Assembly: GCA_030600585.1 (NCBI GenBank)
Contig: JAUVLU010000010.1
Location: 1 to 64,000, forward strand
Reading direction: 5' to 3'
From: Candidatus Cloacimonadota bacterium
Lineage (GTDB): Bacteria > Cloacimonadota > Cloacimonadia > Cloacimonadales > TCS61
DNA length: 64,000 nucleotides
Position 1 is the stretch's first letter. Each line of letters starts with the position of its first letter. Of the stretch, positions 27,125-58,030 are shown piece by piece. The notes under the pieces were generated by a model. That model was not told the DNA's origin, made no database searches, and saw nothing but the letters and a program-made list of their open reading frames with translations. Position numbers and translations under genes: made by a program.

Positions 27125-28444
27125 ATGCAATTTTCCGAAGAGTTCTTATACCATATCTGGGATGCTCAACATTTAAAGAAGAATCTAAAAACAATATCAG
27201 GTAAAAAGCTCATCATTAAATTTCCCGGACGTTGGAATACAGATTCAGGTCCCGATTTTAAGGATGCAATTCTGGAAATAAATGGGAAAATTCAAAAAGG
27301 CGATGTCGAGATAGATCTAACCTCATATCACTGGAAATCTCACTCACATAATGAAAATCCCGAATTCAATGGTGTGCTTTTACACATCGTTTACGAAGAT
27401 AACGGAAAGTATCCTTTCACGATCAATGAAGATGGTGGGAAAATTGAGATTTTAGAGATCAAAGAACAATTAACTGATGATATCAATAAACTAATAAAAC
27501 ATTATTCAGGGAAACCGTATTCTGAGAAAGATAAAACCTGCAAATTGTTTAACAAAATGACTAAAGACGAAACAATACAACTTCTTACAAAGATGGGTAT
27601 AATGCGCTTTGAGAAGAAGATAAAACGGTTTAGTGCAGAACATTTCTTCAGCGATTTTGATCAACTTATTTATATGGGTCTCATGGAAGCTCTGGGTTAC
27701 AGTAAGAATAAATACCAAATGCTGCAGATCGCCTTGAATAACACTTTTAAAGACCTTAAACAATTTTATAATAATGGTATGACAAAAGACGAGTTTATAG
27801 GTATTCTGCTTTGTTCTTCAAATCTGATAGACCATCTTCCATCCACAATTTCCAACGAGTATAAAATGAAATGGCAAAAGCTTTTCCAAAAACAGAAATT
27901 CATAAATAAAACTTCTGAGATCAAATGGAAATTATTCAGGATAAGACCTGTTAATCATCCGGTAATAAGAATATTACAAATTACAGATATTCTTTATGAC
28001 AGCTTGGAAACATCGCTTTTCCACAATATACTAAAACTGTTCTCATTCCCTTCCAATAATTTTAAACTGAACGATTTCAAAAAGAAATTATACAGCTATT
28101 TCCAAACAGAAAATAATTACCTTCCCGAACGCTGTAAACTTGGTAAAACTCGCATTGATACAATTCTTATAAATATAATTCTGCCTCTTACTGTTATCTA
28201 TGCTCGTGAAAAGAAATACGAACAATTGGAAGATACAGCAATTAATATTTACCAAAGTTTTCCGGGTTTACCTTCAAATTATCTAACGCAATATATGGGA
28301 AAATTCTTAGATGAAGAACAGAAGAAACTAATAAAGAAACGAGCGGTTTATCAACAGGGATTACTAAAAATATATTACGAAAACTGCCGACACCATTATT
28401 GCGAAGCATGCAAAACCTTGCGAAAGATGCATCGGCTTGAGTAG
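27125..28444 (+). CDS. DUF2851 family protein
   Basis: A protein of 439 aa. The start MQFSEEFLYHIW and the block GRWNTDSGPDFKDAIL followed by KGDVEIDLTSYHWKSH are diagnostic of DUF2851, a conserved family of unknown function in Bacteroidetes-related bacteria. A nuclease-like core in the N-terminal part has been suggested by the D...E pattern, which I infer only. ATG 27125 has AAAGGAG 8 nt upstream; a TTG at 27104 would add seven residues. The end carries a Cys/His cluster (CRHHYCEAC). The last ten residues (KTLRKMHRLE) and the stop are encoded by a dispersed repeat that begins at 28411. Confidence 0.87.
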   Translation: MQFSEEFLYHIWDAQHLKKNLKTISGKKLIIKFPGRWNTDSGPDFKDAILEINGKIQKGDVEIDLTSYHWKSHSHNENPEFNGVLLHIVYEDNGKYPFTINEDGGKIEILEIKEQLTDDINKLIKHYSGKPYSEKDKTCKLFNKMTKDETIQLLTKMGIMRFEKKIKRFSAEHFFSDFDQLIYMGLMEALGYSKNKYQMLQIALNNTFKDLKQFYNNGMTKDEFIGILLCSSNLIDHLPSTISNEYKMKWQKLFQKQKFINKTSEIKWKLFRIRPVNHPVIRILQITDILYDSLETSLFHNILKLFSFPSNNFKLNDFKKKLYSYFQTENNYLPERCKLGKTRIDTILINIILPLTVIYAREKKYEQLEDTAINIYQSFPGLPSNYLTQYMGKFLDEEQKKLIKKRAVYQQGLLKIYYENCRHHYCEACKTLRKMHRLE

Positions 28445-28644
28445 CAAACGATGCTGGGACTCTCTTGCTTGTCTAACGGTTGAGTTACGGTTACCTTCGC
28501 AACGGTCGCAGACCTTGCGAATGGTGACAAAGCAATTCAGTGATTTTTTCCAACCATTAGTTGGCAGAAAGAATTCCAGTATCGTTTTCAACAAGTTGAA
28601 AGCCGATACATTATTGCGGAGGCTTACAGCCATCCGCAAGGTTT
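28411..28644. repeat. Fold-back repeat, AACCTTGCG family, copy 1
   Basis: It starts with AAAACCTTGCGA and ends with CATCCGCAAGGTTT. The left arm has GATGCATCGGCTT...CAAACGATGCTGG. The right arm has the inverse: TCCAGTATCGTTTTC...GAAAGCCGATACATT. The middle has ACCTTCGCAACGGTCG and ACCTTGCGAATGGTGACAAA. Copies with the same words are at 39134-39343, 39350-39482 and 41352-41501. The left end overlaps the 3' end of the DUF2851 gene. Confidence 0.85.
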
Positions 28645-28689
28645 AGAGTTACCTTCGGAAAGGTTACTGTAAATCAGCAATAAACAATC

Positions 28690-37136: not shown

Positions 37137-39187
37137 ATTTAAAGAAAATATTCGTAATCTATAAAAAAGAAATGCTCGATCTCGTTCGTGACAGAAGAAC
37201 TATAATTACCGCATTCGTACTTCCAATTATACTCTATCCACTTTTAATGATCGGTATTTCATCGATGATGTCACGTCAGGAAATGAAACTGGAGCAGCAG
37301 GAACTTGTTATATATCTTAATGATACTATTCATGATGAGACTTCCCGTGAATTAATAGAATCACTTTCTCAAATCGAGACTCTTCAAATCATGGATGAAG
37401 CAATAGTTTACAACGAGGGTACATATCTTGATCTACTTCAGGATAAATCTATTCAGGCTCTGATCAATATTGAGGACAGTCTATCTTCATCCGGCTATAG
37501 AATTTTCAATATTACCTGTTTCTACGATGAAACTTCCGAGAAAAGTTCTATGGCATACAGAAAGATCAAAGACAATCTGCGTGATCTTGAAGAAGTTCTT
37601 ATCAGTAAAAGATTGGAGAAGATAAAAATAAACAGTGAAATTCTCAATGCAGTAGAGATCAAAAAGGAGAATATCGCTCCACCGGAACAGATGGTCGGTT
37701 TTGTTGTTGGGAAGTTCCTGCCGTATCTGCTTATTATGCTTACGATAAGCGGTGCTTCTGTAATAGCATCGGATCTGATAGCTGGTGAAAAGGAACGCGG
37801 CACGCTTGAAACAATTCTGGTAAGTGCTGCTAGACGGGATGAACTGGTTATTGGTAAATATCTCACAATTATTACAATTTCAATTATCACTGTTCTTTTA
37901 AATCTTTTGAGTATGTATCTGTCTTTCCGGCATATATTTATGCAGACGGGAACAAATATAGGTGACTTCCAATTACCAATTGGAAATTTTGTGCTCATCT
38001 TGTTGTTGATGCTTCCATTAATTACATTATTCTCAGCTATTCTGCTTTCTATTTCAACATATTCCAGGAATATTAAGGAAGCTCAAAGCTATCAAATGCC
38101 GTTACTTTTTGGAGCTATCATGCTTTCTATGGTTAGTTTTCTGCCCGGATTTGAATTGAATATAGGTTTCGCTCTTATCCCAATTGTAAATTTTTCTTTG
38201 TTAATGCGCGATATCATGATGAATAATTTTCAATTAAGTTATTTATTTATTGTAATAGGGTCCACACTGGTCCTAGATGTTATCACAGTATATATTTCAA
38301 TAAAACTATTCCATAGTGAAAATGTTCTTTTTAGAACTGCCGAGGAAAAATCACTGAAATTCTGGGGTAAAAATAAGAAAGATGTTCTCAACATACAATT
38401 TATTATGGTCTATTTTGTTATCATGATAATTGCACTTTATTATATCGGTGGAAGCTGGCAGTTAAAGGATATGATGAACGGACTCATCAAAACTCAATTA
38501 CTCATAATTTTATTACCGGTAATAATGATTTTAAGAATTTCTAAAGCAGATATTAAAAAGACTTTAAGATTGAATTATACAAATCCGATAAATTTCTTGT
38601 TAGTGCTCATTGCAGCACTTCCACTTTTATTGTTATCAGGAATTTTGGGTCAGATTATTAACCATATATTTCCTGTTTCCGAAGCATATTTGGAAATCCT
38701 GCAGAATCTGATTACAGTTCAACAAGAAGGTTTATGGTTCACGATCTTCGTAGTTGGAATTTTACCAGGGGTTTGTGAGGAAGTAATGTTCAGGGGGTTT
38801 ATTTTAAATGCCTTAAGAAAGAAAGGGGTTTGGTATGGAATAATTCTTACGGCTGTTTTGTTTGGAGCTTTCCATCTTGATCCGTTCCGTTTTCTTCCTG
38901 CAACTTTACTTGGAATTTGGCTTGGTTATCTCGCAGTTAAAACTAATAGCTTATTTGTACCTGTTCTGGCACATTTTTTGCAGAATTCACTGGCAATTCT
39001 CATAACAAATTATGCAGAGAATTTTTCATTTATCAAACTTATAATTAGAGATGATGAGATAGCATATTGGGTTGTTATTCCTTCTGTAATAATACTTTAT
39101 TTTGTTGTAAAAGGTTTATCAACTCTAAATCCTAAAACCTTCGCAACGGTCGAGGAACAAGACCTTGCGAACGGTGACAAAGATTGA
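37133..39187 (+). CDS. ABC-2 permease fused to a CPBP intramembrane protease (NatB-type)
   Basis: A protein of 684 aa. Residues 1-400 form an ABC-2 permease: a first helix near 27-45, a large extracytoplasmic loop, then six helices including IASDLIAGEKERGTLETIL. Residues about 410-660 form a CPBP/CAAX-type membrane protease with CEEVMFRGFIL (motif 1, Glu-Glu), FGAFHLDPFRF (motif 2 His) and AHFLQNS (motif 3 His). Fused permease-proteases of this order are known in several phyla. Their cargo is unknown; sodium or peptide export is proposed for relatives. The last 17 residues (KTFATVEEQDLANGDKD) and the stop are encoded by a dispersed repeat. Confidence 0.9.
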   Translation: MNLKKIFVIYKKEMLDLVRDRRTIITAFVLPIILYPLLMIGISSMMSRQEMKLEQQELVIYLNDTIHDETSRELIESLSQIETLQIMDEAIVYNEGTYLDLLQDKSIQALINIEDSLSSSGYRIFNITCFYDETSEKSSMAYRKIKDNLRDLEEVLISKRLEKIKINSEILNAVEIKKENIAPPEQMVGFVVGKFLPYLLIMLTISGASVIASDLIAGEKERGTLETILVSAARRDELVIGKYLTIITISIITVLLNLLSMYLSFRHIFMQTGTNIGDFQLPIGNFVLILLLMLPLITLFSAILLSISTYSRNIKEAQSYQMPLLFGAIMLSMVSFLPGFELNIGFALIPIVNFSLLMRDIMMNNFQLSYLFIVIGSTLVLDVITVYISIKLFHSENVLFRTAEEKSLKFWGKNKKDVLNIQFIMVYFVIMIIALYYIGGSWQLKDMMNGLIKTQLLIILLPVIMILRISKADIKKTLRLNYTNPINFLLVLIAALPLLLLSGILGQIINHIFPVSEAYLEILQNLITVQQEGLWFTIFVVGILPGVCEEVMFRGFILNALRKKGVWYGIILTAVLFGAFHLDPFRFLPATLLGIWLGYLAVKTNSLFVPVLAHFLQNSLAILITNYAENFSFIKLIIRDDEIAYWVVIPSVIILYFVVKGLSTLNPKTFATVEEQDLANGDKD

Positions 39188-39343
39188 TCAGTGTTTCTTC
39201 CAACCATTGCGTCCATTCTCCGAAGTATTCTACGAAGGATGAAGAGGTCTCCGACCATCAGACAGGTGAGAGAGTTCCAGCATCGTTTTCTTGAAAAGCA
39301 GGAAGAATCAATGACGAAAGCCGATGCATCATCCGTAAGGTTT
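39134..39343. repeat. Fold-back repeat, AACCTTGCG family, copy 2
   Basis: It starts AAAACCTTCGCAACGGTCG, contains GACCTTGCGAACGGTGACAAA and TCCAACCATTGCG, and ends with the inverse arm TCCAGCATCGTTTTC...AAAGCCGATGCATCATC, then CCGTAAGGTTT. The first 54 bp are inside the coding region of the ABC permease fusion. Confidence 0.85.
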
Positions 39344-39349
39344 AGTGTT

Positions 39350-39482
39350 ACCTTCGCAACGGTTGAAATCCTTGCGAATGGTGACAAAGTGATTTAATGG
39401 TTGAACGCCTTGCGAATGGTGAAAATGATTGATCAGTGTTTCTTTCAACCATTGCGGAGGACATTGTCCATCCGCAAGGTTT
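39350..39482. repeat. Fold-back repeat, AACCTTGCG family, copy 3 (shorter)
   Basis: It begins ACCTTCGCAACGGTTGAAA, 6 bp after copy 2. It contains CCTTGCGAATGGTGACAAAG and a second CCTTGCGAATGGTG, and ends in the hairpin AACCATTGCGGA / TCCGCAAGGTTT. It ends 22 bp before the glmS start. Together, copies 2 and 3 fill the 317-bp gap between the ABC permease gene and glmS; no glmS-type ribozyme is seen. Confidence 0.85.
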
Positions 39483-39504
39483 CAGTAAATATTAAGGAGC
39501 AAAT

Positions 39505-41351: not shown

Positions 41352-41501
41352 TACCTTCGCAATCATGCATCGGCTTTGCAAAGCAAAACGATGCTGGAAC
41401 TCTCTTGCTTAACAAACGGTCGAGGAACGAGACCTTGCGAATGGTGACTAAAAGAATGGTTGTTCAACCATTGCGGAGGTCTTTGACCATCCGCAAGGTT
41501 T
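41352..41501. repeat. Fold-back repeat, AACCTTGCG family, copy 4
   Basis: It starts ACCTTCGCAATCATGCATCGG, has a GCATCG / CGATGC hairpin around GCTTTGCAAAGCAAAA, then ACGGTCGAGGAACGAGACC and TTGCGAATGGTGAC, and ends in the hairpin AACCATTGCGGA / TCCGCAAGGTTT. It fills the 168-bp gap between glmS and recO almost completely, and the recO ribosome-binding site TAAGGT begins at its last base. Confidence 0.85.
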
Positions 41502-41511
41502 AAGGTAATTT

Positions 41512-42453: not shown

Positions 42454-43437
42454 ATGAAAAGAAAAGATATAATTAATCTAATTTTATTTATTTTGGTGTT
42501 TGCTTTTGCGGCATACAGGTATTCAACCAGAACATATTCATCACAGAGATCTGCCTTTGTAATGGATACACTGGTTGATATAAAAATTGAAACGAAACAT
42601 AAGAATACAAATGAGTTATTGGATATGGCATTCAGATTAATGGAAGATTATGAGGATAAATTATCATTTTATAAAAACGAAAGCCCAATATGGAAATTCA
42701 ATAATTCCATCATCGATAGTCTTTACATTGATGAAAACCTAAAAGAAATTCTTCTCATTTCCGAAAAACTTTTCAGTAAGACAAACTCACATTACGATAT
42801 CACCATTGGTGCTTTATCTGAGGTTTGGGATTTTGATAATAATATAATTCCTTCAAATTCAGAGATTGAAAAAGCAATTCAAAATACTAATTTCAGAAAA
42901 TTAATAATTCAAAACGGTTATCTGTATAAACCGGCTGGAATGAAGATAAATCTGGGAAGCTTGGCAAAGGGTTATATTATTGATAAAACAATCGAATATT
43001 TAAAGCAGCAGAATGTAATTTCAGGATTTGTTAATGCCGGGGGCGATATGCGTATCTTCGGCAGGAAGAAACCTTTTAAAATTGGAATTCAGCATCCCAG
43101 AAGTGAATCGAACGAAATGATCGATGTGATAAAAGTTATGAATATGTCGGTTGTTACTTCAGGTGATTATGAAAGATATTTCATAAAAGATGGAAAACGT
43201 TATCATCATATTATCGATCCTTTTACGGGTTATCCATCACAAAATGCTGTCTCTGTCACTGTTATTGCCAAAACTGCTTTAATTGCCGATGCATATTCTA
43301 CTGCGCTGTTTTTATTGGAACCGGAAAATGCAATAAAACTTGCAGATGAAACCGAAGAACTTGATGCAGTTATTTATTTTTTTAGAGAAGATAAAATAGA
43401 GAAACTTGAAACTGTTGGAATAAATGTTTATTATTGA
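42454..43437 (+). CDS. apbE: FAD:protein FMN transferase
   Basis: A protein of 327 aa. A hydrophobic anchor (about 8-21) without a lipobox Cys is followed by the ApbE domain: VMDTLVDIKIE, LSFYKNES, NLGSLAKGYIIDKTIE, NAGGDMRIFG, VTSGDYERYF, HHIIDPFTGYPS and DAYSTALF. It attaches FMN to Thr or Ser of flavoproteins such as RnfG/RnfD or NqrB/C on the outer face of the membrane. No Rnf genes are in the window. Confidence 0.95.
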   Translation: MKRKDIINLILFILVFAFAAYRYSTRTYSSQRSAFVMDTLVDIKIETKHKNTNELLDMAFRLMEDYEDKLSFYKNESPIWKFNNSIIDSLYIDENLKEILLISEKLFSKTNSHYDITIGALSEVWDFDNNIIPSNSEIEKAIQNTNFRKLIIQNGYLYKPAGMKINLGSLAKGYIIDKTIEYLKQQNVISGFVNAGGDMRIFGRKKPFKIGIQHPRSESNEMIDVIKVMNMSVVTSGDYERYFIKDGKRYHHIIDPFTGYPSQNAVSVTVIAKTALIADAYSTALFLLEPENAIKLADETEELDAVIYFFREDKIEKLETVGINVYY

Positions 43438-43476
43438 AAATGAATATTTAAAATCGAAGAATGAAAAGGAAAAATT

Positions 43477-43684
43477 AGCCGCGAAGTTCACTAAGGAGCA
43501 CTAAGACAAAAAACGAAAGGTTTTTCTCCCGACTTAGCACATGATCTTTGACATGTGCTAAGTCTTGGTTGAAACTTGTCCCAAGTTCCTGCAGTAATCT
43601 TCCTTCGGCAATTAAATCTTGGGATAAGTTGGTTTGAACCATATTCTTTGCGTCTTTGCGTTCTTAGCGGTGAAAAAAGGAAAT
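43477..43684. repeat. Palindromic repeat before folE2, long copy
   Basis: It starts AGCCGCGAAGTTCACTAAGG and ends GCGTTCTTAGCGGTGAAAA-AAGGAAAT. Inside, GACTTAGCACATG (43531-43543) pairs perfectly over 13 bp with CATGTGCTAAGTC (43552-43564). AACTTGTCCCAAG (43573-43585) pairs with CTTGGGATAAGTT (43618-43630) with one mismatch. Its last bases are the ribosome-binding site of folE2. Confidence 0.85.
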
Positions 43685-43687
43685 ATT

Positions 43688-44500
43688 ATGAAAGATAAAA
43701 TTGATATACAAAGTCTGGAAGATAAAAGAAATGTAATGATAAACAAAGTTGGTGTGAAAAATGTGCAATATCCAATTATTGTGGATGACCGTGAGAATAA
43801 ATTACAGAATACAGTTGCCGATCTGGACATTTTTGTAGAACTGCCGCATCATAATCGTGGAACACACATGAGCAGATTTCTGGAAGTTCTTAATCATTTC
43901 CATAAAGATAATTTAATTCAGAGATTACCGGAGTTTCTTGCTGAAATAAAGAAAGCTCTTAATTCCGATTGTGCTTATGTTAACATCAGGTTCCCGTACT
44001 TTATGAAGAAGGCAGCTCCGGTTTCCAAAACCAGTTCACTGCTTTCTTATAACTGTTATTTTCAGGCTTCACTAAACAATGAATTCGAAATGCAGATTGG
44101 AGTTGAGGTACCGATTACTACTTTATGTCCATGCTCAAAGGAAATAAGTGATAATGGCGCTCATAGTCAGCGGTCAATGGTAAATGTAATAATTGGTTAC
44201 AATAAATTTATCTGGTTGGAAGAGATAATACAGCTTGTAGAAAGTTGTGCGAGTTGTGAGATATATTCGCTGCTTAAACGGGTTGATGAAAAATACGTTA
44301 CAGAAAAAGCTTATGAGAATCCAAAATTTGTTGAGGATATTGTAAGAGAAGTTACATTAAAATTGCAAAAAGATGAACGAGTTGATTGGTTCAAAGTGCA
44401 ATCGGAAAATTATGAATCGATCCATAATCATAATGCTTATGCCTGCGTGGAATTTGATAAAAGAAAAAAATCAGCCGCGAAGTACACGAAGAAGCACTAA
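43688..44500 (+). CDS. folE2: GTP cyclohydrolase, FolE2 type
   Basis: A protein of 270 aa. It carries the FolE2 marks VELPHHNRGTHMSRF, TTLCPCSKEISDNGAHSQRS with the catalytic-site Cys, and the C-terminal NYESIHNHNAYA. It opens GTP to dihydroneopterin triphosphate for folate or queuosine, and unlike FolE can use metals other than zinc. ATG 43688 has AAAAAAGGAAA upstream; an in-frame ATG at 43634 would add 18 residues encoded by repeat DNA and is rejected. The last nine residues (SAAKYTKKH) and the stop are also encoded by a second copy of that repeat. Confidence 0.95.
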   Translation: MKDKIDIQSLEDKRNVMINKVGVKNVQYPIIVDDRENKLQNTVADLDIFVELPHHNRGTHMSRFLEVLNHFHKDNLIQRLPEFLAEIKKALNSDCAYVNIRFPYFMKKAAPVSKTSSLLSYNCYFQASLNNEFEMQIGVEVPITTLCPCSKEISDNGAHSQRSMVNVIIGYNKFIWLEEIIQLVESCASCEIYSLLKRVDEKYVTEKAYENPKFVEDIVREVTLKLQKDERVDWFKVQSENYESIHNHNAYACVEFDKRKKSAAKYTKKH

Positions 44501-44615
44501 GACGAAAAACGAAATGTTTTTTCCCGATTTAACACATGATCTTCGACATGGGTCAAGTCTTGGTTAGTTTGTATTCTTAGCGTCTTTGCGTTCTTGGCGG
44601 TGGAAAAAAGGAAAT
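44473..44615. repeat. Palindromic repeat after folE2, short copy
   Basis: It starts AGCCGCGAAGTACACGAAG and ends GCGTTCTTGGCGGTGG-AAAAAAGGAAAT. The central stem is decayed (GATTTAACACATG against CATGGGTCAAGTC), and the second palindrome of the long copy is missing. It fills the folE2 to M16 gap completely, overlaps the folE2 3' end by 28 bp and ends in the ribosome-binding site of the next gene. Confidence 0.85.
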
Positions 44616-44617
44616 AA

Positions 44618-47140
44618 ATGAAAGTAACATCGAAAATATTTAAAAATGATTTTAAGGTAATTACAGCTCGGGATAATTCTAATCCTCTGGTTTGCCTTCA
44701 GCTATATATTCGTATTGGTTCTGCCTGGGAAGAGAGATCGGAAGCCGGATATTCACATCTAACAGAACATCTTGTGTTTAAATCTACAAAAGCATTTCCA
44801 CAGAATTCAATGATGAACAAGATAACAAATCTGGGTGGATCTGTTAATGCATATACCGAATTCGATTCTACCTGTTTCTATATTATTATTCCTTCCAAAT
44901 TTACAGAAGAAGGAATTGAAATGCTGTCTGAACTTGCAATTAATACAAATTTTTCCAATGAAGATTTCAGCTCGGAAAAAAAAGTAGTTATAGAAGAACT
45001 TAAACAATTTAAGAACGAACCTGAAGATTCATTCATAGAAGATATTGCGGCAGATTACTTTACGAAAAATCCGTATAAGAAACCTATCATCGGAAACATG
45101 AATTCCCTAAAGAAAGCAGATCCCGATTCTCTTCGCGATTTTTATAAAAAATATTATGTTCCAAATAACTGCTTCTTAGTTGTTTCGGGTGATATTAATG
45201 GAAATAAGCTTTATAAAGTGATCGAAAAGTATTTTGGCAAATGGGAACCCTCTAAATTAAAAGAACGTAAGCGAATGAGCAATAATTTTCCAGATAACCC
45301 CAAAATCAAATATTTGCCCAAAGACATCTCCAGCAATATGCTTGCTTTTGTTCTTCCTGACCTTGCAGAGACAGATCCCGATGCATATCCACTTTCTCTG
45401 GCGACCAAAGCATTTGCAATCGGTAAGAATTCAAGGTTGTATAAAAGATTGTTTACACAGGAAAAACTTATAGATGGAGTACGTGTTCATTCTCTCAGCG
45501 GAATCAATGACGGCGCTTCTGTAATAATACTTCTACCAAAAAGAAAAGCCGATCTAACAAAGATCAGTAAAATATTCCTGGAAGAACTAAAACAATTCTT
45601 TATGCATGGGATGAACGATATAGAATTAGATGATAACAAAAAGGAATTAGTTTATTTCTATCGTTATACATTTGAATATATGGAATCTCTTGCATCGAGT
45701 TTGGGAAGTGAAGAGATTTTATTTAACTACAAGAAATTCTTTGAATATCCGGAAATGATAAGAAATATCACAAGCAATGATATCAAACGGATAATAAAAA
45801 GTTATTTCAGCAAAGAACATCTTTATATTTACTGCACAGGTAAAGATAATGTAAATAAGAACGTTCTTGGTAAACTTCTTAAAGAAAAATATAAAATTAA
45901 TAAAATTATAGAACAAACATTTTTTGAAACCCGTTTGGATAATGGAATGAAAATCCTACTGAAAAAGGTTACAGGTAAACCAACGGTGGGGCTATCGCTC
46001 TCGTATGAAGTGTCGCAATTGAATGAAACAAAAGAAAATCTCGGAATAAACTATCTTACATCTACTCTGCTGCTGTACGGTAACGAGAAACGCAATTATC
46101 AGCAGTTTCTAAATTATTGTACTTCAAATGGAATCAACTTTGGGATCAGTCCGCAAAGCGAAACAACTCTTTTTAATGCAAAATGTTTTAAGGAAATGCT
46201 TCCGGCAAGCTTGGAATTACTTTCCGATGTTGTGCTTTGTCCCACCTTCCCAATAGAACATTTCAATAACATTAAACTTACTATAAAAAGTAATCTGGAT
46301 AGAGTAAAAGATTATCCACAACATAATTCCGCACGTCTTTTCTCAGAGATGATATTTGGAAAAAAAAGCAATCTTAACAGTCGTTCCGGTTCAAAAACAT
46401 CAATCCAGAGTATTACATTAAAGAAGATCAAAGAATGGTATGGAAAGCATTATCAACCACAAAATATGTCGCTTGCAATTGTTGGTGATTTTAATTTTGA
46501 TGAAGTTCTAAGATCATGTGAAGCAAATTTTGTTTTTAAGAGAAAAAATTATAGAAGATCTATTCAAAAGGTAATAATAAATTCATCTAAAATTAGATAC
46601 AAATTAACAAAAAAAGGAATGGATCAGGCAATCATTAATATTGGCGGATTTGCCTGCAATGCAGACCAGAAAGTAAAGAACACGGCATTTCATGTTCTTT
46701 CACAGATCATAGGCGGAGAAAGTGATTCGATCCTTTTCCGTGAACTTCGTGAGAAACGCGGTCTTGCTTATTCTGTTGATTTTAATTATAGTTCCGTTAG
46801 ATCTACAGGATTCTGGATTGCTTCGGCAGTTGTTGATAAAATAAATAAAGACGAAGCAGTAAAGGTTATCTGCGATGTTCTAAAAGATATTAAGACAAAC
46901 GGCATCACACCCGAAGAGCTTGAAACAACCAAAAATTTTGTTCGAGGTCAAAGAGTTATGGAACAGGAAAGTGTGCTTAATCAGGCACAAACGCTTTCCA
47001 TTTTGGAATCTCTTGGCTTAGGTTATTCTTATTATCTCAAAAGAGATGAGCGTCTGAATAGGGTAGATGTGAAAATGTTACACGAGCTTGCGGCTGAATA
47101 TTTCAAAGAAGAAGATCATTTCATACATATTATGGTTTAA
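44618..47140 (+). CDS. M16-family zinc peptidase with two M16 units
   Basis: A protein of 840 aa. The N-terminal unit has the inverted zinc motif HLTEH near residues 46-50 and the downstream Glu in VVIEELKQF. The C-terminal unit, from about 437 (FETRLDNGMKILLKK), lacks HxxEH and should be the inactive partner half, with the RELREKRGLAYSVDF motif near 705-719 that binds substrate. There is no signal peptide, so it is probably cytosolic. The two-half layout in one chain is like PqqF or pitrilysin, which close around short peptides. Confidence 0.92.
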   Translation: MKVTSKIFKNDFKVITARDNSNPLVCLQLYIRIGSAWEERSEAGYSHLTEHLVFKSTKAFPQNSMMNKITNLGGSVNAYTEFDSTCFYIIIPSKFTEEGIEMLSELAINTNFSNEDFSSEKKVVIEELKQFKNEPEDSFIEDIAADYFTKNPYKKPIIGNMNSLKKADPDSLRDFYKKYYVPNNCFLVVSGDINGNKLYKVIEKYFGKWEPSKLKERKRMSNNFPDNPKIKYLPKDISSNMLAFVLPDLAETDPDAYPLSLATKAFAIGKNSRLYKRLFTQEKLIDGVRVHSLSGINDGASVIILLPKRKADLTKISKIFLEELKQFFMHGMNDIELDDNKKELVYFYRYTFEYMESLASSLGSEEILFNYKKFFEYPEMIRNITSNDIKRIIKSYFSKEHLYIYCTGKDNVNKNVLGKLLKEKYKINKIIEQTFFETRLDNGMKILLKKVTGKPTVGLSLSYEVSQLNETKENLGINYLTSTLLLYGNEKRNYQQFLNYCTSNGINFGISPQSETTLFNAKCFKEMLPASLELLSDVVLCPTFPIEHFNNIKLTIKSNLDRVKDYPQHNSARLFSEMIFGKKSNLNSRSGSKTSIQSITLKKIKEWYGKHYQPQNMSLAIVGDFNFDEVLRSCEANFVFKRKNYRRSIQKVIINSSKIRYKLTKKGMDQAIINIGGFACNADQKVKNTAFHVLSQIIGGESDSILFRELREKRGLAYSVDFNYSSVRSTGFWIASAVVDKINKDEAVKVICDVLKDIKTNGITPEELETTKNFVRGQRVMEQESVLNQAQTLSILESLGLGYSYYLKRDERLNRVDVKMLHELAAEYFKEEDHFIHIMV

Positions 47141-57778: not shown

Positions 57779-57795
57779 TAAGAACAAAAATGAAC

Positions 57796-57966
57796 TTTTT
57801 CACCGCAAAGAACGCAAAGACGCAAATTCTAAACTTCTATAACCGTGAATCTCGTTCCCAATGCCCTCATTGGGAACACACAGCATTTCCAAACGGGCAG
57901 TCTGTGTGAAAATGAAAAATCCGTTGATTTTAGGAACTTAAATTAGCCTTCTAAACTTCTATAACC
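57796..57966. repeat. Hairpins and direct repeat after pdxJ
   Basis: TTTCACCGCAAAGAACGCAAA at its left is the inverse of the right end of the folE2 repeats. GTTCCCAATG-CCCT-CATTGGGAAC (57854-57877) is a perfect 10-bp hairpin that may terminate pdxJ. CACACAG (57877-57883) pairs with CTGTGTG (57902-57908). An 18-bp word TTCTAAACTTCTATAACC is present twice, at 57827-57844 and 57949-57966. Confidence 0.7.
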
Positions 57967-58005
57967 AATGACCAGTTACCAATGACCAGTTACCAATGAC
58001 CAATT
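57964..58005. repeat. Three tandem 14-bp units ACCAATGACCAGTT
   Basis: Units start at 57964, 57978 and 57992; the first differs in its first two bases' context and the third ends ATT in place of GTT. There are no spacers, so it is a minisatellite-like repeat and not CRISPR. Confidence 0.85.
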
Positions 58006-58030
58006 TTTTCTCGGTGTTAAATTTATTCTC

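What the first reader, a model, noticed from the sequence alone, without database searches (positions are those of the whole stretch)
43477..44615. Two copies of a second palindromic repeat flank folE2 and carry ribosome-binding sites
Both copies start GCCGCGAAG and end with GCGTCTTTGCGTTCTT(A/G)GCGGTG-AAAAAAGGAAAT directly before an ATG. So the repeat's right end acts as the Shine-Dalgarno of folE2 and of the M16 peptidase. The second copy also encodes the last nine residues of FolE2 (SAAKYTKKH). The folE2 to M16 junction therefore consists only of repeat. The long copy has a perfect 13-bp hairpin (GACTTAGCACATG); in the short copy it is decayed and a second palindrome is lost.
Basis: partly seen in the sequence, partly recalled or inferred. 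Interest (0 to 1): 0.66.

Follow-up and report, generated by a model that had tools for sequence, protein, structure and literature searches.

The report
Gene-free relics of operon-gap elements
The two repeats beside folE2 are inserted DNA elements, probably gene-free relatives of small nuclease-carrying elements that repeatedly settle between a stop codon and the next ribosome-binding site in operons; they do not supply that binding site, which was already there before the insertion.

Summary
Both copies exist (43478-43672 and 44474-44602), 15 nt before folE2 and M16. In same-genus relatives without the insert, the same Shine-Dalgarno (SD) sequences are present. The M16 SD, AAAAGGAAATAA, is the old 3' end of folE2 (gap 0 nt). 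So the repeat inserted beside an existing SD; it is not the SD.

The repeat is composite: outer arms (GCCGCGAAG.. / ..GCGTTCTTAGCGGTG) around a palindrome that also occurs alone. Arms of this class bracket a GxxExxY gene (PDDEXK_3, PD-(D/E)XK nuclease family) in the pur operon of the same genome, and fill gene-free junctions there. Across 80 GxxExxY genes in this Cloacimonadota family, the arms are gene-specific inverted repeats (20/80 above the 99th percentile; ordinary genes 3/185). They travel with the protein subfamily (0/1000 permutations) and often end within 30 nt of the next SD and start (17/37; random 7.5%). The purE-purD gap alone received at least three independent insertions. S23/IVP genes behave alike.

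Best reading: the folE2 repeats are ORF-less, decaying members of this little-described element class. How the elements move is unknown; no general target duplication was found.

The parts
43478..43672 (+). Long copy: composite insert between apbE and folE2 (outer arms plus inner palindrome modules)
   Evidence: absent in same-genus relatives L054, L056, L058
43478..43506 (+). Left outer arm GCCGCGAAGTTCACTAAGGAGCACTAAGA
   Evidence: same left arm without the inner module at C84, C80, C62
43531..43564 (+). Inner perfect 13-bp hairpin (GACTTAGCACATG ... CATGTGCTAAGTC), first part of a palindrome module found alone elsewhere
43565..43634 (+). Second palindrome of the inner module (AACTTGTCCCAAG ... 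CTTGGGATAAGTT); lost in the short copy
43645..43672 (+). Right outer arm CTTTGCGTCTTTGCGTTCTTAGCGGTG, same class as the arms of GxxExxY elements in the pur operon
43673..43687 (+). Host Shine-Dalgarno region of folE2; pre-dates the insert (relatives: GAAGGAATATT-ATG)
43688..44500 (+). folE2 (GTP cyclohydrolase FolE2); last nine codons plus stop come from the second insert
   Evidence: relatives end DKRK*
44474..44602 (+). Short copy: insert between folE2 and the M16 peptidase gene, shared with relatives G034 and G038 (L051, L052)
44603..44617 (+). Host Shine-Dalgarno region of the M16 gene; equals the ancestral 3' end of folE2 (AAAAGGAAATAA)
   Evidence: L054, L056, L057; gap 0
44618..47140 (+). 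M16-type peptidase gene (YfmF/YfmH-like)
57796..57826 (-). Third right arm of the same class, facing the stop of a pdxJ-like gene, no SD

Best explanation
The two repeats are insertions, each an ORF-less and decaying member of a family of intercistronic elements with inverted arms. Gene-bearing members carry a small GxxExxY protein (PDDEXK_3 family, intact D...ExK motif) or an S23/IVP four-helix-bundle protein between the arms. They settle in the gap between one gene's stop codon and the next gene's SD in the same operon. Transcribed, the element becomes a hairpin that ends just upstream of the SD, so the downstream gene keeps its own SD and the upstream gene keeps or gains a nearby stop; here FolE2 gains nine residues by reading into the left arm. 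Shown: insertion (empty sites), an SD older than the insert, gene-specific inverted arms around GxxExxY and IVP genes, arms that move with the protein subfamily, repeated independent insertion at one junction, and arms-only states at junctions where sister species have the gene. Inferred: that the folE2 copies derive from a GxxExxY element, that the protein helps the element move, and that the precise position reflects selection, a target preference, or both.
For: Empty sites with the same SDs in same-genus relatives at M16 and at folE2; 19 of the 27 relatives with both ends scored have a folE2-M16 gap of 4 nt or less, against +117 here. Same-class arms bracket a GxxExxY gene between purC/E and purD, and ORF-less arms fill the purH-purC gap of the same operon. 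Sister species have GxxExxY genes in that purH-purC gap. Inverted arms: 20/80 GxxExxY genes above the 99th percentile of mismatched pairings and 11/33 IVP genes, against 3/185 ordinary short genes. Arm similarity follows protein similarity where flanking DNA is unrelated (rho 0.23, 0/1000 permutations). Right arm ends followed by SD+start within 30 nt in 17/37, random 7.5%, left ends outward 0/37. The purD junction holds proteins from at least three clades with three arm classes. RNA folds close just before the SD: z -4.5, -2.25, -7.2 and -5.4 for pur-operon arms. Active-site residues D70, E80, K82 and Q94 are 99-100% conserved in 80 proteins.
Against: No GxxExxY gene was found at the folE2 junctions in any relative, so descent of these two copies from a gene-bearing element rests on arm class only. 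Arm complementarity of the window copies is weak: the long copy is no better than shuffles (0.26), the short copy 0.022; the long copy's fold is driven by the inner hairpins. Just under half of the GxxExxY genes (37/80) have arms above the 95th percentile. A target-site duplication, suggested at M16, is not general (mean rank 0.51 in 29 elements). No transposition was observed.
Confidence: 0.72

Rival explanations
1. One reading: the repeat is a mobile or regulatory unit whose right end is itself the Shine-Dalgarno, so inserting it supplies translation initiation to the next gene.
For: Similarity between the two copies runs on past GCGGTG through AAAAAAGGAAAT to the ATG; 9 of 29 GCG-class arms lie 10-22 nt before a start.
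Against: The SDs exist in relatives without the insert. Right ends facing stops lack GGAAAT. Arms face stops as often as starts.
Confidence: 0.07
2. Ordinary MITE: a non-autonomous derivative of a conventional transposon, mobilised in trans by a DDE or tyrosine transposase, unrelated in mechanism to GxxExxY or IVP.
For: Short, palindromic, multi-copy, intergenic, sometimes fused to ORF ends, like ERIC, Correia and RPE elements (PMC2229807).
Against: No transposase with such termini was seen beside any copy read. No consistent target duplication. The arms match those of GxxExxY elements, and such arms travel with that protein.
Confidence: 0.15
3. Local regulatory structures (attenuators, mRNA-stability hairpins) that arose in place and are kept for operon regulation, not mobile DNA.
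For: Hairpins end exactly before the SD; they occur in biosynthetic operons such as pur and folE2.
Against: At the same junction related species have unrelated repeats, GxxExxY genes or nothing. The same class recurs at unrelated genes. No Rfam match.
Confidence: 0.06

Closest known systems
23S rRNA intervening sequences (IVS) with S23/IVP protein (Coxiella, Leptospira and others; PMC4990558)
   Same: Small ORF inside a stem formed by terminal inverted repeats, inserted where the host RNA tolerates it; described there as a selfish element with unclear mobility. The same protein family (PF05635) sits in inverted arms here.
   Different: Here the elements lie in mRNA intercistronic gaps, not in rRNA; the main protein is GxxExxY/PDDEXK_3; the folE2 copies have no ORF.
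REPIN/RAYT (PMC3116915)
   Same: Short inverted repeats dispersed outside genes, with different repeat classes each tied to a different copy of a small catalytic protein.
   Different: No RAYT seen; the gene lies inside its own arms; arms are built of 8-11 nt micro-repeats and differ between elements; PD-(D/E)XK-type protein.
ERIC / Correia (NEMIS) / Rickettsia palindromic elements (PMC2229807)
   Same: About 100-200 bp, imperfect palindromes, in gaps between genes, sometimes fused in frame with a gene end (as FolE2 SAAKYTKKH).
   Different: No TA target duplication seen; no sequence relation shown; arms shared with protein-bearing elements.
GxxExxY protein family (TIGR04256 / PF13366 PDDEXK_3)
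   Same: Gene-bearing members of the element carry exactly this protein.
   Different: The databases list it as a protein family; an element with arms around it was not found in the papers searched.

Membership tests
MITE-like non-autonomous element (general) | Short, multi-copy, no transposase gene inside | tested here: met
   195 and 129 nt, no ORF for a transposase; about 8 right ends in the genome
MITE-like non-autonomous element (general) | Insertion shown by empty sites in relatives | tested here: met
   L054, L056, L057 (M16 junction), L054, L056, L058 (folE2 junction)
MITE-like non-autonomous element (general) | Terminal inverted repeats | tested here: inconclusive
   Arms pair in the RNA folds, but complementarity is only p 0.26 and 0.022 against shuffles
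MITE-like non-autonomous element (general) | Target-site duplication | tested here: inconclusive
   A-rich match AAAAGGAAA on both sides at M16; no general signal in 29 related elements
GxxExxY inverted-arm elements (this report) | Arms of the same class as those around a GxxExxY gene | tested here: met
   C47 pur-operon element and G031 L116 right arm GCGTCTTTGCGAACTTAGCGGTG
GxxExxY inverted-arm elements (this report) | GxxExxY gene between the arms | tested here: not met
   No such gene at the folE2 junctions in the window or any relative; ORF-less arms do occur at the purH-purC and purE-purD gaps where sister species have the gene. So the copies are at most gene-free derivatives.
IVS of 23S rRNA | Located in a 23S rRNA gene | tested here: not met
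   Located between protein-coding genes
IVS of 23S rRNA | Stem excised by RNase III | not testable with these tools
   Needs RNA data
REPIN/RAYT | REP motif and an associated RAYT gene | not tested
   No RAYT search was run; no RAYT was seen beside the copies read
Rickettsia palindromic elements / ERIC / other Rfam-listed RNAs | Match to a curated RNA family | tested here: not met
   No Rfam match in 42800-45200 up to E = 1

The most novel reading that the evidence does not exclude
GxxExxY (PD-(D/E)XK-type) and S23/IVP genes, each inside its own inverted micro-repeat arms, are autonomous mobile elements of an undescribed kind. They spread without a classical transposase into the stop-to-SD gaps of operons in many bacterial phyla, and leave ORF-less hairpins such as the two at folE2.
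Probability: 0.4. Interest if true: 0.85.

Novelty: new variant of a known kind. Interest (0 to 1): 0.62.

Why it matters
GxxExxY, 23S_rRNA_IVP and similar small proteins are annotated in many genomes without a role. If they are the genes of inverted-arm elements that settle in operon gaps, that gives them a context, explains many of the degenerate 'CGCAAAGACGCAAAG / CACAGAGACACAGAG' intergenic repeats, and provides a natural experiment on how operons tolerate insertions between stop codon and ribosome-binding site. It also warns that repeat-derived tails (SAAKYTKKH) get annotated as protein ends.

Tried and rejected
(1) SD as part of the repeat: rejected by empty sites. (2) General target-site duplication covering the SD: suggested by M16, rejected as a general rule. 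(3) A specific preference for starts over stops: not found. (4) Exact 23-mer scan of genome contigs gave only two hits, both Candidatus Cloacimonadota AUK116; too strict for statistics. (5) Several hits of the 15-mer right-end pattern with one mismatch in relatives lie in ordinary coding sequence and are chance. (6) Rfam: nothing. (7) Phage records: no GxxExxY relative. (8) Solved structures: no hit for the GxxExxY protein by single sequence. (9) Literature by sequence string and by family name: no paper on such elements in the open-access library.

Full report
OBSERVATION. The window carries apbE, folE2 and an M16 peptidase gene in one direction. Between apbE and folE2 lies a 195-nt insert (43478-43672), and between folE2 and M16 a 129-nt insert (44474-44602). 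Their ends are alike and their middles differ: the short copy lacks about 65 nt, including the second palindrome, and its first hairpin has decayed. The long copy's hairpin is a perfect 13 bp. The right-end 23-mer occurs three times in the window with at most one mismatch, against none in shuffles, and an 18-mer of it about eight times in the 2.58-Mb genome with up to two mismatches.

THE REPEAT IS COMPOSITE. A BLAST of the long copy against its own genome gives separate families of hits. The outer arms occur without the inner part (C84, C80, C24, C62). The inner palindrome (ACTTAGCACA..TGTGCTAAGT plus AACTTGTCC..GGGATAAGTT) occurs without the arms (C19 at 88% over 102 nt, C10 twice, C68, C16, C58, C47). 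The folE2 copies are therefore one element class holding a second one.

THE SD IS NOT PART OF THE REPEAT. FolE2 was searched in 40 genomes of the same family and the junctions were read. In G036 and G031, folE2 ends GAT AAA AGG AAA TAA and the M16 ATG follows at once; G032 is alike (GAT AAA AGA AAG GAC TAA ATG). The M16 SD is the end of folE2. In 19 of the 27 relatives where both ends were scored, the gap is 4 nt or less. In the window, and in G034 and G038, the insert separates GATAAAAGAAAA from AAAAAAGGAAATAAATG, and FolE2 reads into the left arm (SAAKYTKKH or SAAKFTKKH). Upstream of folE2 the empty form is GAAGGAATATT-ATG, with apbE running into folE2 (G036, G031; G033 nearly so). The same gap holds a different repeat in G034 and G037 (..GTCAGTGTAAATCTGTGGC..), another in G039 (CACAGAGACACAGGG), and a GCGGTA arm with a different body in G038. 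At M16, G037 and G039 carry yet another class (CCACAGAC.. in G039..GTCAGTGAAAGTCATGTGGC in both). So both gaps have been hit several times, by different repeats, always just upstream of the SD.

WHERE THE ARMS COME FROM. In the same genome, arms of this class bracket a GxxExxY gene between purC/E and purD. ORF-less arms of the class fill the purH-purC gap from just after the stop to just before the SD, and right arms precede purH and purN. The purH-purC arms fold into a long stem ending before the SD (-36.9 kcal/mol, z -5.4). In G031, G038 and G039 that very gap holds a GxxExxY gene with ACAGAG-type arms. The purE-purD gap holds a GxxExxY gene in five genus members (the window genome included) with three arm classes, an arm without the gene in G039, a right-arm remnant in G038, and nothing recognisable in G035. 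A tree of 80 proteins needs at least three separate entries into that gap. This shows gene-bearing and arms-only states at one site.

IS IT GENERAL? In this family 32 of 39 genomes carry GxxExxY genes, up to 16 each, and 33 of 39 carry IVP genes. For 80 GxxExxY genes the 150 nt upstream and the reverse complement of the 150 nt downstream match far better than mismatched pairs: median 25 against 17; 20 above the 99th percentile; 26 beat all 40 mismatched partners. IVP genes: 11 of 33 above the 99th percentile. Ordinary short genes: 3 of 185, and the top two scorers are an IVP gene and a DUF559 nuclease-like gene. Between elements with unrelated flanking DNA, arm similarity rises with protein identity (rho 0.23; 0 of 1000 permutations as high), so arms and gene move as a unit. 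The right arm is followed by an SD and start within 30 nt in 17 of 37 elements, random positions 7.5%, left ends 0. Named plasmid records show the same layout: Bacteroides finegoldii radA-GxxExxY-FAD protein (arm score 45), Bernardetia ade-GxxExxY-guanylyltransferase (36), with related arms or operon-gap placement in Gemmatirosa, Treponema and Sphingomonas (fabD-GxxExxY-fabG). The Fusobacteria plasmid copy lacks inverted arms.

MECHANISM. GxxExxY is PDDEXK_3. In 80 proteins D70, E80, K82, Q94, E30 and Y33 are at least 99% conserved, as expected for a working PD-(D/E)XK active site. I infer that the protein acts on its own arms or on the target. The insertion point between stop and SD may be a target preference or simply what survives selection; arms touch stops as often as starts (8/29 and 9/29, background 2.2% each), which favours filling the gap without damage. 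A target duplication is suggested at M16 but is not general, which would fit repair-type insertion better than a classical transposase. These steps are not shown.

LIMITS. The two folE2 copies have weak arm complementarity, and no relative has a GxxExxY gene at those gaps. Their link to GxxExxY elements rests on arm class, orientation, position and the parallel in the pur operon. Gene calls in the statistics are simple ORF calls. The library searched holds only open papers, so 'undescribed' means not found there.

KNOWN RELATIVES. Delihas (PMC2229807) reviews ERIC, Correia and RPE elements, which also sit in gaps, fold in RNA and fuse to reading frames. REPINs with RAYTs (PMC3116915) are the closest model for repeat classes tied to a small catalytic protein. 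The IVS of Coxiella 23S rRNA (PMC4990558) is the closest for a small ORF inside a stem, with the S23 protein and the same open question of mobility.

Noticed in passing
window 28413-28645, 39145-39491, 41385-41509: A different intergenic repeat family (CCTTGCGAATGGTGACAAAG... / ATTGCGGAGG..CCATCCGCAAGG), several copies in both orientations; similar sequence (aaccttgcgaatggtc..) follows the HD gene in relatives G007, G010 and G015.
   Followed up: no
G000 C47:66516-75945 (L240): pur operon in which most gaps (before purH, purH-purC, purC/E-GxxExxY, GxxExxY-purD, before purN) carry GCG-class arms; one holds a GxxExxY gene.
   Followed up: yes
G000 C19:9850-11210 (L044, L046, L082): Two near-identical S23/IVP genes with AATTAGGAATTAGG-type arms occupy both gaps around an HD-domain gene between an isocitrate-dehydrogenase-like gene and an aconitase-like gene; a second HD gene copy is at C21:86698.
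   Followed up: partly
G000 C47:88258-88575 (L241 8258-8575, minus): A DUF559 (nuclease-like) gene flanked by inverted copies of another common repeat (CCCCTCT..AGAGGGG..GTGGGGTGTG); possibly a third protein family with its own arm class.
   Followed up: partly
uppS junction: L045 (window genome) and L198, L202, L204 (G008, G014, G009): The gap before uppS holds an IVP gene in the window genome and a GxxExxY gene with GACAGGATTAACAGGAT arms in three relatives: different element genes use the same gap.
   Followed up: partly
L010, L012, L014, L015, L017, L018, L035, L036: The inner palindrome module (ACTTAGCACA..TGTGCTAAGT + AACTTGTCC..GGGATAAGTT) is a separate intergenic repeat family with about eight other copies, two of them near each other on C10.
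   Followed up: partly
window 57780-58030: A stack of nested repeats downstream of a pdxJ-like gene, including a GCGGTG arm, a CCCAATGCCCTCATTGGGAAC palindrome and ACCAATGACCAGTT tandem units.
   Followed up: no
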